From Archaeoglobales archaeon (lineage in GTDB: Archaea; Halobacteriota; Archaeoglobi; Archaeoglobales; Archaeoglobaceae), in the NCBI GenBank assembly GCA_029984855.1, contig JARQZL010000108.1, positions 1 to 36,404 on the forward strand: DNA of 36,404 nt, read 5' to 3'. Both the position numbers and the translations under genes were made by a program. Positions 29,300-33,313 of this stretch are shown one piece after another; the stretch's first letter is position 1, and each line of letters opens with the position of its first letter. The notes under the pieces were generated by a model. The model did no database searches. It was not told where the DNA came from and saw only the letters and a program-made list of their open reading frames with translations.

Positions 29300-29336
29300 C
29301 AGTTCAAATTAAAAAAATAAATTAAAAAAATAAAAA
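29300..29336 (-). terminator. T-rich terminator after DUF5320 genes
   Basis: The plus strand shows AATTAAAAAAATAAATTAAAAA, a near-tandem 13-base repeat, which reads as two T-runs in the minus sense directly after the stop at 29337. It probably ends the DUF5320 transcript and insulates the Mth938-like gene. Confidence 0.55.
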
Positions 29337-29558
29337 CTACTTACCGGAGGTGGTTTTGAGTTGTTCTATTCTTCTGTTTATCTCTTCAAGCTCTGCTTCA
29401 AGTTCCCTTTTTTCTTCTTCAAGAGCCCTCAGTTCATCTTCAGGCGTTGGATAGCTATAAGCCGGAGGGTAGGGGTAGGGCGGATATTGCCATGCAAGCC
29501 ATCGCCATCTCCAGCCTCTGCCCCATCCCCAGCCTAAGCCTGGCCACCACCAAGGCAT
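29337..29558 (-). CDS. DUF5320-like protein, C-terminal part
   Basis: This 73-residue frame begins [20 protein letters not shown], continues with a proline-tyrosine run ([21 protein letters not shown]), and ends with a coiled coil ([23 protein letters not shown]). That is exactly the second half of DUF5320 proteins. It is in the same frame as the preceding 61-residue frame and separated from it by a single TAA codon (29561-29559). A Shine-Dalgarno-like GGAGGTGG stands about eight bases before the ATG, so restart of translation on TAAATG is possible. The alternative is a nonsense mutation. Confidence 0.65.
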
Positions 29559-29744
29559 TTACCACCACCTCCGTCTAAACCTCCTGCTCCAGAATCTGCT
29601 GTATCTGCTGAACCACCTTCCGCCAAACGGAGGCCATACAGAGCGATTTGCGTATCCTGGCCTGTTATAGCCCGAACAGTAGCCTGCCTTTCTCCCGGTT
29701 CTGCTTCCCAGCCCCCACGGGCCTGTTCCATCTCCACCTGGCAT
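29559..29744 (-). CDS. DUF5320-like protein, N-terminal part ending in TAA
   Basis: MPGGDGTGPWGLGSRTGRKA (then GYCSGYNRPGY) is the strongly conserved N-terminus of DUF5320 proteins, small glycine-, arginine- and aromatic-rich archaeal proteins often found near Mrp/NBP35 ATPases and nitrogenase-cofactor-type proteins. The frame runs 61 residues to RRFRRRWW and then stops at TAA; the coiled-coil half continues in the same frame. ATG 29744 has a TATA-like TTTAAGTA about 25 bases upstream and a perfect palindrome next to it. Confidence 0.65.
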   Translation of the reverse strand: MPGGDGTGPWGLGSRTGRKAGYCSGYNRPGYANRSVWPPFGGRWFSRYSRFWSRRFRRRWW

Positions 29745-29747
29745 GTC

Positions 29748-29763
29748 TTGAATATATATTCAA
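29748..29763. promoter_or_regulatory. 16-base perfect palindrome at the DUF5320 start
   Basis: TTGAATATATATTCAA reads the same on both strands and lies three bases before the DUF5320 ATG, between it and the likely TATA region (29767-29775). A repressor bound here would block the start site. Confidence 0.55.
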
Positions 29764-29776
29764 AAATACTTAAATT

Positions 29777-29792
29777 TTTCGGTTGACCGAAA
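29777..29792. promoter_or_regulatory. Inverted repeat TTTCGGT-TG-ACCGAAA
   Basis: Seven-base perfect arms with a two-base centre sit just upstream of the DUF5320 TATA-like region and about 30 bases before that of the RAD55-like gene (29814-29821). The position suits an activator or shared operator. Confidence 0.5.
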
Positions 29793-29858
29793 CAATTCCA
29801 TAGTGGATAAAGCTAATATAGTATGAAAGACAAATAACAATTGTAGGTGATAATAATA

Positions 29859-30587
29859 ATGATGGAATTTCAACAGCAGTATCAGATTCCAAAAATAAGA
29901 AGTAAGCCCACAGGGATAACTCTCCTTGATAAGAGATTAGACGGAGGTTTGCCCGAAGGCAGCCTGGTATGCGTCTATGCAAACCCCATAAGCATGCCTG
30001 AGGCTTTCCTCTACCAATTCGCCTCCGTAAATAACACTTACTACTTCACAACCTCACGCCCTGCACAGTACGTTAAGGAGAACATAGAAGCCATGGGGTT
30101 CCCGGCAGATAATATCGAGTTTATTGATGTATTCTCCCAGTACTATCTCAACGAGTACGGGCAGTTCGTGCTTGAGGATCGTTACAGAGATAAGGAAATA
30201 TTCGACTTCATTGACCACCACATAAACGAGATACTATCAAAGCAGGAAGATTGCACGGTTATATTCGACTCAATATCCTTTTTCCTGAAGCTGGATGTTG
30301 GAAGGGGGTTGAAAGAGTGGCTTATTAACAAGCTGTACATAGCGTCAAAGCAGAGTAAAGATCTGTACTACATCTATATGATGAAGGGTGTCCATCCAGA
30401 TGACATAGTTTACATGGTGGTGGACATCTGCGATGTCGTATTTGACATAGACACAGAGCGTTTGGGAGATCGCATATCCAGCAGGCTGGCAATTCCGAAG
30501 ATAAGGAATAAACCGCCAATGATGGAGACGTTCAAGTTCTACATAAGCGAGGGTGTGCAGATAGATACTTCAAAGGATATCGCTTAG
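29859..30587 (+). CDS. RAD55/KaiC-like RecA-fold protein lacking Walker A
   Basis: This 242-residue protein has the KaiC/RAD55 beginning PTGITLLDKRLDGGLPEGSL, but where the Walker A loop (GxxGxGKT) belongs it reads VYANPISMPEAFLYQF. The Walker B-like strand CTVIFDSISFF is kept. ATP hydrolysis is thus improbable, while the fold and assembly may remain, as in recombinase paralogues that act as structural subunits. ATG 29859 is set by AGGTGAT seven bases upstream; a GTG at 29847 lies in that ribosome site. A TATA-like TAATATAG is at 29814-29821. It is divergent from DUF5320. Confidence 0.8.
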   Translation: MMEFQQQYQIPKIRSKPTGITLLDKRLDGGLPEGSLVCVYANPISMPEAFLYQFASVNNTYYFTTSRPAQYVKENIEAMGFPADNIEFIDVFSQYYLNEYGQFVLEDRYRDKEIFDFIDHHINEILSKQEDCTVIFDSISFFLKLDVGRGLKEWLINKLYIASKQSKDLYYIYMMKGVHPDDIVYMVVDICDVVFDIDTERLGDRISSRLAIPKIRNKPPMMETFKFYISEGVQIDTSKDIA

Positions 30588-30627: not shown

Positions 30628-33313
30628 TCAGTTTCTTTTCGGTGCTTTCTGAAGCTTACTTCCGTGATACTTGTAAATCTCACCAGCCACAAGAACAGGG
30701 AGGCCCAGAGCAAACACCAGCACCCAGTCCAAAAACCTCAACGGGACTGTATGCAGTACAGCCTGCATAAAGGGCACGTAAACAGCTACCGCCTGAAGGG
30801 ATACAGTTGCAAGCCATGCCCCGATAAGGTACGGGTTACTTAAAAATCCTATATCTTTGAGGTTGTGTCTGAAGCTTCTGAAGTTGAAGACGTTTACCTT
30901 CTCGAAGACAATAATGCCGGTAAAGGCAATAGTTCTGGCCTCATCCAGACCGGTAGCGAAGCAACCCTTAAAGACGAGGATGGTTGCACATCCAATCCAC
31001 ATACCGATGAGCAGTATTGCTGCGAATGCATGTTTCGACAGAATCGGTTTTTCCGGGTCTCTTGGCCTTCTTTTCATCACATCTTTCTCCTTTGGCTCCA
31101 TTCCCAGGGCTAAAGCTGTCAAACCATCAGTGACAAGGTTCATCCATAGTATCTGAACGGGCAGGAGGATAAGAGGCAGACTTAAAAACATTGCTCCGGC
31201 GATAGCGATGATTTCACCAAAGTTGGATGAAAGAAGGTACCGGGTGAACTTCTGAATGTTGTCGTACTGTCTTCTCCCTTCCTCAATTCCACTAACAATA
31301 CTCGCAAAGTTATCGTCAAGCAGAATCATATCCGAGGCTTCTTTTGCCACATCTGTTCCTTTTATTCCCATCGCAATACCTATACTTGCTTTCTTAAGGG
31401 CCGGAGCGTCATTAACACCATCTCCGGTCATTGCAGTAATGTGACCCTTCTCCTGAAGTAACCTGATGACCCTCAGCTTGTGAGAAGGATTTACCCTCGC
31501 AAACACTCTTGTATCTTCCAGAGCTTCTCTCAACTCTGTATCGTCCATCTCATCAAGCTCTTTTCCTGTAACAACTCTCTTAGAGGGTAAGCCGATCTGC
31601 TCTGCTACCGCCTTTGCTGTAAGTGGTGCATCTCCAGTCATCATTATCACTTCGATTCTTGCTTTCCTGGCAGTGACAAGCGCATCCTTTACTTCAGGTC
31701 TCGGAGGGTCGAGGATTCCAGCGATTCCAAGAAAAACAAGCTCTTTTTCAACCTCATCAGCGTACAAATCCTTTTTATCTGGGAAGTTCCCTGTATGCAA
31801 ACGCAAGAACTATCAGACCTCTCTCCGCCATTTTCTCATAAGCTCTGAGGAACCTCTGCTTTCCCTTCTCTCCAAGTCGCTTTATTCCGTCTTCTGTGCA
31901 GTAGTATGCACTTCTCTCCAGTATGACTTCCGGGGCGCCCTTTGTGTACGCAGTGTTTCTGTCCTCATAGTGATAAATCACCGTCATCCTCTTCCTTATA
32001 GAGCTGAACGAGAACTCGGTTACGAGAGGTGGCATTATGTCTTTTCTGAATATCTCTGCCTTGTTCGCAGCAACGACGAGAGCTCCCTCTGTTGGCTCAC
32101 CCACAATCGTCCATCCCTCATCGCTCTTCTCCAGAACAGCATGATTGCACAGAAGGCCAGCTTCAAGGAGTTCGTAAAGACATTTAAGTTCTTTCGGATT
32201 GATTGTCTTCCCCTCACTTAAAAACTCCCCTCGGGGCTCATATCCCTCTCCCGTCACCTCTACGAGCCAATAAGGAATGAATATCTCAACCACAGCCATC
32301 TCATTCCTTGTCAGAGTTCCTGTTTTATCTGTACATATCACCGACGCTGCTCCAAGAGTTTCTGAAGCCATGAGATGTCTTATAAGGCAGTTTCTCTTAA
32401 CCATGTTCTTTACTCCGAGAGCGAGAGTCATTGTAACAACCGCCAGCAGACCCTCAGGTATGACGGCAACAGCAAGGCTCACACCAACAAGGAACATCTC
32501 AACAATTTCTCTTTGCTGAATGATTCCAAGAATACCTATAGCAACTGCAATGAGGAGTGATATTTCTCCTATTTTCCTGCCAAGAGCGTCCAGACGTCTT
32601 TTCAGCGGGGTTTCCTCTTCTCCTACCTCCTGCGTAAGTTTTGCAATTTTTCCGAGTTCCGTGTGCATTCCTGTAGCAACAACAATGCCCTTACCATAAC
32701 CGTTTGTTATAATGGTGCCCATAAACAACATGTTCTTTCTTTCAGCAAGTGATGCTTTTTCAGGCACAATTCCTGTCATCTTGTTAACGGGTACAGATTC
32801 TCCTGTAAGGGATGCTTCATTCACCTGCAACGCTCCTGCCTCTATCAGGTACACGTCGGCAGGAACCTTCTCTCCCATCTCAAGTACTACCACGTCACCG
32901 GGAACCAGAAGTGCTGAATCAATCTCCTTAATTATTCCATCCCTCATCACTCTGGCTTTAGGAGACAGCATCCTCTTCAATGCTTCTATCGCTCTCTCTG
33001 CCCTGTATTCCTGATAGAATCCAAGAATTGCGTTCAGCACGATGATTGCCAGAATTGTTGCCGCATCTGTAATCTCGCCTATGGCGAACGATACTGCTGT
33101 TGCTCCAATCAAAATCAGAATTAAAACGTTCCTGAATTGATTTATGAAAATTCCTGAAGGAGTCGTTCTCCTTTCCTCTTTTAACCTGTTTTCCCCATAT
33201 CTCTCGAGCCTGAGTGATGCTTCTTTCGACGTAAGCCCCTCTTTTGATGTACTGATTTCCTTCAGGAGATTGTCTAACGTCATGCTGTGCCAGTTCAGAG
33301 AGCATCCCCCCAT
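30628..33313 (-). pseudogene. Type IIA-like cation P-type ATPase, frameshifted
   Basis: Two frames join to a full-length ATPase of about 890 residues. The first (33313-31775) carries TM1-TM4, TGES (170-173), VIPEGLLA in TM4 (E287), and the phosphorylation site CTDKTGT (D329). It ends AYRELPR and stops. Dropping one base at 31780 continues as [16 protein letters not shown] into the second frame (to 30628), which carries [26 protein letters not shown], and TM5-TM10 with [15 protein letters not shown], close to the calcium pump's TM6. The ion is probably Ca2+, less surely Na+. The start ATG 33313 overlaps the antiporter gene by 19 bases. The indel could be a real mutation, an assembly error, or +1 frameshifting at CCC-A. 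Confidence 0.82.

What the first reader, a model, noticed from the sequence alone, without database searches (positions are those of the whole stretch)
29337..29744. DUF5320 gene split by one in-frame TAA with a built-in restart
The two halves of a DUF5320 protein are in the same frame, separated only by TAA, directly followed by ATG and preceded by GGAGGTGG. Either one nonsense change has been tolerated, or the protein is now made as two subunits by stop-restart (TAAATG) translation.
Basis: partly seen in the sequence, partly recalled or inferred. Interest (0 to 1): 0.55.

Follow-up and report, generated by a model that had tools for sequence, protein, structure and literature searches.

The report
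Two touching genes, not one broken
What looked like one small gene broken by a stop codon is a pair of touching genes that related archaea also keep separate, probably made one after the other from one message and probably controlled by iron.

Summary
The sequence is as described: on the minus strand a 61-aa DUF5320 N-half ends in TAA (29561-29559) and an in-frame 73-aa C-half starts at the next base (ATG 29558-29556), behind GGAGGTGG. A tolerated nonsense change does not explain it. Of 55 family genomes (window's own included) 24 carry the N-half and 18 have the C-half directly behind it. In these 18 pairs the C start is out of frame in 15 and in frame in 3; all three stop codons occur; the junction runs from a 1-nt overlap to +6 nt. 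A same-genus relative has TAATG, out of frame. Both halves show purifying selection. Outside Archaeoglobaceae 60 of 65 named loci hold one fused protein, so the split looks like an old fission kept as a stop-start pair, fitting termination-reinitiation. New here: 24 of 24 N-half promoters carry TTT[AC]GGN4CCGAAA, a site also found before FeoA-DtxR, FTR1, NifX-like and Fe-S genes, and in two genomes the pair lies next to feoA-dtxR-feoB. This places it in a predicted iron regulon. Its biochemical function is untested. New variant of a known kind; moderate interest.

The parts
29559..29744 (-). N-half gene of the DUF5320 pair, 61 aa, stop TAA at 29561-29559
   Evidence: PF17253 positions 1-62, E 1.4e-14; homologues in 24 of 55 family genomes
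29337..29558 (-). C-half gene of the DUF5320 pair, 73 aa, start ATG at 29558-29556, Gly/Trp/Tyr-rich start and coil-like end
   Evidence: PF17253 positions 38-99, E 2.3e-10; directly behind the N-half in 18 of 55 family genomes
29565..29572 (-). GGAGGTGG, Shine-Dalgarno match for the C-half, inside the end of the N-half gene
   Evidence: Sequence; GGAGG within 20 nt of the C start in 15 of 18 pairs; complementary to CTGGATCACCTCCT, present once in the genome (not verified as 16S)
29777..29792 (-). Box 1, palindrome TTTCGGTCAACCGAAA, predicted iron-regulator site overlapping the probable BRE
   Evidence: TTT[AC]GGN4CCGAAA in 24 of 24 N-half promoters; also before FeoA, FTR1, PF02579 and PF04060 genes
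29769..29774 (-). TTTAAG, probable TATA box
   Evidence: Position between box 1 and the start; inferred from sequence
29748..29763 (-). Second palindrome TTGAATATATATTCAA between the TATA box and the N start
   Evidence: TGAATN4ATTCA in 16 of 24 N-half promoters, TTAGGN4CCTAA in 2, neither in 6
29306..29336 (-). T-rich stretch behind the C stop, possible transcription terminator
   Evidence: Sequence; inferred

Best explanation
The two halves are two genuine genes on one message. In the Archaeoglobaceae lineage a single-chain DUF5320 protein (N motif, Gly/Trp linker, coil) was divided in the linker into two short proteins, and the second part has its own start and usually a Shine-Dalgarno site inside the end of the first. 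Ribosomes finish the N-half and, at once or within a few bases, reinitiate on the C-half (termination-reinitiation), so the parts are made together and probably act together. Transcription starts from a promoter with a palindrome shared with FeoA-DtxR, FTR1, NifX-like and Fe-S genes, so the pair is probably made in response to iron and serves iron or Fe-S handling. Shown by sequence: two conserved genes, conserved abutting junction, purifying selection, shared promoter box, neighbourhood with feoA-dtxR-feoB in two genomes. Inferred: fission direction, one message, coupling, a two-protein complex, DtxR as binder, the role in iron. My odds by step: two real genes and no recent nonsense 0.93; coupling by reinitiation 0.75; member of an iron regulon 0.8; physical complex 0.5.
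For: 18 of 55 family genomes have the pair; C start offset +2 in 14, +1 in 1, 0 in 3; stops TGA 9, TAA 5, TAG 4; gap -1 to +6 nt. Window against same-genus G002: differences by codon position 10/8/33 (N, 61 codons) and 10/11/31 (C, 70 codons), dN 0.16 and 0.14. GGAGG before the C start in 15 of 18. 0 of 15 named Archaeoglobaceae loci fused, 60 of 65 others fused. C-halves align with the second part of fused proteins. Box 1 in 24 of 24 N-half promoters; in 32 box loci examined 22 have a DUF5320, FeoA, FTR1, PF02579 or PF04060 gene just downstream. In G040 and G006 the pair lies next to feoA-dtxR-feoB in convergent orientation, and in G006 iron-transfer-type ATPase genes and a boxed NifX-like gene lie upstream on the strand of the pair. 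Experiments on other pairs: reinitiation needs overlap or very short distance (PMC10666635, abstract).
Against: No expression, proteomic or binding data. Three of 18 pairs lack GGAGG before the C start, and 4 of 6 N-only genes have an SD-like run near their stop without any C-half, so the SD alone proves little. In same-genus G001 the C gene is shifted by a small indel, so it may be dispensable or misread there. 25 of 55 family genomes have no PF17253 match at all. The fission direction rests on distribution; no tree was built. 10 of 32 box loci have no evident iron-related target, and the own genome has only 5 box rows against 3 control rows. Box 1 overlaps the BRE, so part of its conservation could be promoter, not operator.
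Confidence: 0.8

Rival explanations
1. A single-chain DUF5320 gene broken by a recent nonsense change (or sequencing error) in this genome, tolerated because the downstream part restarts or is dispensable.
For: The parts are in one frame with only TAA between, and fused forms are the rule outside the family.
Against: 18 pairs with different stops, 15 out of frame; in these 15 read-through would give 0-64 residues of another frame. Same-genus G002 has TAATG out of frame and G001 TGA with a 2-nt gap. Both halves under purifying selection against G002.
Confidence: 0.03
2. Programmed stop read-through: a fused 135-residue protein is made beside the short N-half.
For: The frame is open in the window, G010 and G044 (3 of 18 pairs).
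Against: Out of frame in 15 of 18, with three different stop codons and varying spacing. No conserved stop context was sought beyond this.
Confidence: 0.03
3. Two genes that only share a message: the C-half starts independently at its own Shine-Dalgarno site, without coupling to termination of the N-half.
For: GGAGG in 15 of 18 pairs, matching the probable 16S 3' end.
Against: Gap -1 in 8 of 18 and at most +6 in all 18, the range in which reinitiation works in tested pairs (PMC10666635 and PMC6728339, abstracts); three pairs lack GGAGG.
Confidence: 0.2
4. Box 1 is only a strong core promoter element, or the site of another regulator such as MsvR, so the pair is not part of a DtxR iron regulon.
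For: The right arm CCGAAA runs into the probable BRE; TTCGGTNNACCGAA contains TTCG..CGAA (MsvR motif recalled, from no call). 10 of 32 box loci have no evident iron-related target.
Against: The left arm TTT[AC]GG is kept in 24 of 24; the sites lie before FeoA (8) and FTR1 (2) genes, whose promoters add TTAGGN4CCTAA in 8 of 8 and 2 of 2; 43 rows against 10 control rows in 12 genomes, palindromic sites counted twice; the pair neighbours feoA-dtxR-feoB in G040 and G006.
Confidence: 0.2

Closest known systems
DUF5320 (Pfam PF17253), single-chain form
   Same: N motif MP..D.TGP.G.GP.TGR...C, Gly-rich linker, coil-like end; both halves match the profile above cut-off; C-halves of four of eight pairs aligned carry the ATGLPGW.R-like motif of fused proteins
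   Different: Two genes instead of one; 0 of 15 named Archaeoglobaceae loci fused against 60 of 65 others
Translationally coupled overlapping gene pairs (termination-reinitiation), PMC6728339 and PMC10666635 (abstracts seen)
   Same: Abutting or overlapping stop and start, most often -1 nt (TGATG/TAATG), SD inside the upstream gene
   Different: Here the two genes are the two parts of one family; coupling itself not measured
Frame-transition clusters classed as translational coupling or gene fission (GeneTack, PMC3711429; passages seen)
   Same: Adjacent parts of one family read as a frame break, with stop and start within 10 nt
   Different: In the window there is no frame change, only a stop; whether DUF5320 is among their clusters was not checked
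Archaeal DtxR-family iron regulons (feoAB with a DtxR regulator)
   Same: Palindromic sites before FeoA-DtxR and FTR1 in the same genomes
   Different: DUF5320 as a member was not found in the papers searched; most DUF5320 promoters have TGAATN4ATTCA where FeoA and FTR1 have TTAGGN4CCTAA

Membership tests
DUF5320 (PF17253) | profile match above the curated cut-off | tested here: met
   N-half 55.4 bits, C-half 41.9 bits, cut-off 27
DUF5320 (PF17253) | one chain over the whole profile 1-99 | tested here: not met
   Two ORFs, 1-62 and 38-99
Termination-reinitiation gene pair | overlap or very short distance between stop and start | tested here: met
   0 nt in the window; -1 to +6 nt in 18 of 18 pairs
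Termination-reinitiation gene pair | Shine-Dalgarno match before the downstream start (helpful, not required) | tested here: inconclusive
   GGAGG in 15 of 18, but SD-like runs also in 4 of 6 N-only genes
Termination-reinitiation gene pair | downstream translation depends on upstream translation | not testable with these tools
   needs reporter experiments
Programmed stop read-through | downstream part kept in frame across relatives | tested here: not met
   In frame in 3 of 18
Pseudogene by nonsense mutation | relaxed selection, intact copy in close relatives | tested here: not met
   Codon-position pattern 10/8/33 and 10/11/31; both same-genus relatives have two genes
DtxR-type iron regulon | operator shared with known iron genes | tested here: met
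   Box 1 before FeoA 8, FTR1 2 of 32 loci examined; 24 of 24 N-half promoters
DtxR-type iron regulon | binding by DtxR and response to iron | not testable with these tools
   needs binding and expression experiments

The most novel reading that the evidence does not exclude
DUF5320 is an iron-regulated protein family, made in Archaeoglobaceae as an obligate two-subunit complex whose stoichiometry is fixed by stop-start reinitiation; it works with FeoA/FeoB iron uptake or with the NifX-like and Fe-S ATPase proteins in handling iron or Fe-S clusters, which would give a function to a widespread family of unknown function.
Probability: 0.37. Interest if true: 0.6.

Novelty: new variant of a known kind. 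Interest (0 to 1): 0.43.

Why it matters
It turns an apparent broken gene into a case of a family that is mostly one chain in the bacteria and archaea sampled but two touching genes in one archaeal family, and it gives a lead on what DUF5320 is for: a promoter site and, in two genomes, a neighbourhood shared with iron uptake and its regulator. Both claims can be tested directly in a cultured Archaeoglobus.

Tried and rejected
Rejected: recent nonsense change and read-through. C-half by tblastn against plasmids: no match. TTTAGGN4CCTAAA alone: 0 sites in the own genome, 45 of 55 family genomes with a match, controls lower but not zero; targets not followed up. One own-genome box site (L051) has no evident target gene. 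The SD control in N-only genes was not clean. Papers: DUF5320 gave 2 papers, one mention each; I saw the passage of PMC7565180 only (one of four M. mazei proteins with a possible G4-binding motif). Searches for a DtxR regulon in Archaeoglobus, FetR and MDR1 gave nothing on the point; a search for the phrase 'DtxR family regulons' listed papers that hold it, not opened. No tree, no structure prediction: the halves are short and of low complexity.

On recount I mended the pairs without GGAGG from two to three, added Pfam on more targets and the feoB neighbourhood, and raised the odds of iron-regulon membership (to 0.8) and of the novel case (0.35 to 0.37) for the neighbourhood found.

Full report
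Observation. On the minus strand 29744-29559 encodes 61 aa ending in TAA, and 29558-29337 encodes 73 aa from an ATG that directly follows, in the same frame; GGAGGTGG precedes it at 29572-29565. Both ORFs match Pfam PF17253 (DUF5320), the first at profile 1-62, the second at 38-99. The description is correct.

Is it a broken gene? I searched the 55 genomes of the window's family, its own included, for PF17253. 30 of 55 had a match at E 0.001; by counting the rows, 24 carry an N-half and 18 of these have the C-half right behind it. G047 has a C-half near a contig end without a found N-half and was left out. In the 18 pairs the C start is offset by +2 in 14, +1 in 1 and 0 in 3 (window, G010, G044); the N stop is TGA in 9, TAA in 5, TAG in 4; the gap is -1 in 8, 0 in 2, +1 in 1, +2 in 4, +5 in 2, +6 in 1 (L013 has two ATGs in a row and the second was counted; with the first its gap is +2). 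G044 starts its C-half with TTG. Same-genus G002 has TAATG, one base shorter than the window's TAAATG and so out of frame; same-genus G001 has TGA and a 2-nt gap. In the 15 out-of-frame pairs read-through would give 0-64 residues of another frame. A nonsense change or read-through design is therefore not the general explanation, and the shared frame in the window is incidental.

Are both parts real proteins? Against G002 the differences by codon position are 10/8/33 in the N-half (61 codons, 75% identical) and 10/11/31 in the C-half (70 codons, 80% identical), dN 0.16 and 0.14, dS saturated: purifying selection on both. N-halves without an adjacent C-half match occur in six genomes of one genus and end at 55-72 aa with ...RFW. 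In G001 the C gene changes frame through a small indel, which may be decay or a sequence error.

Direction. Of 15 Archaeoglobaceae loci none is fused; of 65 others 59 are fused by my rule and L127 also by eye, so 60 of 65. The five exceptions: L072, L101 and L110 (a short copy followed by a further DUF5320 copy), L109 (N only) and L121 from a Bathyarchaeota MAG, where a separate coil gene starts 15 nt behind TAA, an apparently independent split. C-halves align with the second part of fused proteins; four of eight C-halves aligned, not the window's, carry an ATGLPGW.R-like motif that two of the three fused proteins aligned also have. I infer one old fission in Archaeoglobaceae; no tree was built.

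Mechanism of expression. The C ATG is preceded by GGAGGTG with 7 nt between, complementary to CTGGATCACCTCCT, which occurs once in the genome (probably the 16S 3' end, not verified). GGAGG lies within 20 nt of the C start in 15 of 18 pairs; L007, L041 and L043 lack it. Work on Haloferax and E. coli pairs showed that reinitiation needs overlaps or very short distances and that such pairs are enriched for subunits of complexes (PMC10666635, abstract), and that 13 of 14 tested overlapping pairs were strictly coupled with a variable SD contribution (PMC6728339, abstract). The junctions here fit; coupling itself is inferred. The SD argument is weakened by SD-like runs in 4 of 6 N-only genes. A T-rich stretch follows the C stop.

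Control. Upstream of the N start lies TTTCGGTCAACCGAAA (29777-29792), then TTTAAG, then TTGAATATATATTCAA (29748-29763). TTT[AC]GGN4CCGAAA ends 32-47 nt before the start in 24 of 24 N-half genes; TGAATN4ATTCA follows in 16, TTAGGN4CCTAA in 2, neither in 6. TGAATN4ATTCA occurs 46 times in all 696,140 bases of loci then held. The own genome has 4 box-1 sites (5 rows, control 3 rows): before the DUF5320 pair; before a PF02579 NifX-like gene (site in opposite orientation) followed by an ATPase with 4Fe-4S domains; before FeoA followed by a DtxR-family regulator (Pfam); and one without evident target. Twelve further genomes gave 43 rows against 10 control rows, palindromic sites counted twice. I examined the 32 loci returned (4, 28; 13 of the 43 rows came without a locus): 22 have just downstream a DUF5320 N-half (7), FeoA (8), PF02579 (2), FTR1 (2) or PF04060 Fe-S (3) gene; 10 have no evident iron-related target. 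Pfam covered 13 of the 15 non-DUF5320 targets; L158 and L160 were assigned by eye. A DtxR-like ORF follows FeoA in 7 of 8, with Pfam on three. FeoA (8 of 8) and FTR1 (2 of 2) promoters carry TTAGGN4CCTAA between TATA and start; the two PF02579 promoters have neither second palindrome, and of three PF04060 promoters two have TGAATN4ATTCA.

Neighbourhood. In G040 and G006 I read the surroundings: the DUF5320 pair lies convergent to feoA-dtxR-feoB (FeoA, DtxR N and C domains and FeoB by Pfam), with box 1 before both units. In G006 an iron-transfer-type P-loop ATPase (PF10609), two ATPases with ferredoxin domains and a boxed PF02579 gene lie upstream on the strand of the pair. In the window itself the neighbours are different: a DUF498 gene downstream and a divergent KaiC-like gene upstream. 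The pair is best read as part of an iron regulon. What the proteins do is inference: one conserved Cys in a Gly/Arg/Trp-rich N-half, a coil-like C-half, and the company of iron-uptake and Fe-S genes.

Literature. A full-text search for DUF5320 in the held library gave two papers with one mention each; the passage in PMC7565180 names it among four M. mazei proteins with a possible G4-binding motif. Most subscription papers are not held, so I do not claim that the regulon is undescribed; I recall a comparative study of archaeal DtxR regulons that I could not read. That G001 is A. veneficus and G040 is A. fulgidus is recalled from their lengths (1,901,943 and 2,178,400 bases), not from a name in any call. 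Archaeoglobaceae as the family rests on contigs of equal length (for example 5,120 and 11,117 bases).

Verdict. Observation confirmed; interpretation partly supported: two proteins by stop-restart is the better of the two readings, but it is an old, conserved two-gene state, not a tolerated break. The more interesting result is the predicted place of DUF5320 in an iron regulon.

Noticed in passing
30628-33313 (-): A cation P-type ATPase is spread over two overlapping ORFs in different frames (31775-33313 with the N-terminal and E1-E2 domains, 30628-31806 with the hydrolase and C-terminal domains), which looks like a frame break near 31775-31806 or a sequence error.
   Followed up: partly
29847-30587 (+): A KaiC-like gene (PF23442/PF06745) is divergent from the DUF5320 pair; the palindromic box 1 lies between them, 54 nt from its start, and G002 has the same neighbour (L010).
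   Followed up: no
L011 (G001), C-half gene: In a same-genus single-contig genome the C-half changes frame in the middle through a small indel, so the coil part is out of frame.
   Followed up: partly
G000:C63:31316-31465 and G000:C130:8987-9127: The window's genome holds two more weak DUF5320 C-type matches without N-half; similar C-only genes in relatives often carry LPPWERPGW and follow a PF04060 Fe-S gene, some under the same box.
   Followed up: partly
L121: A Bathyarchaeota MAG shows an apparently independent split of DUF5320: TAA, then AGGAG, then ATG of a coil gene 15 nt on.
   Followed up: partly
L003 954-1451 (reverse complement): A probable DNA-binding protein (DUF134-like by recall, not tested) carries a DUF5320-like MPGGDGTGP tail and sits just before a fused DUF5320 gene.
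   Followed up: no
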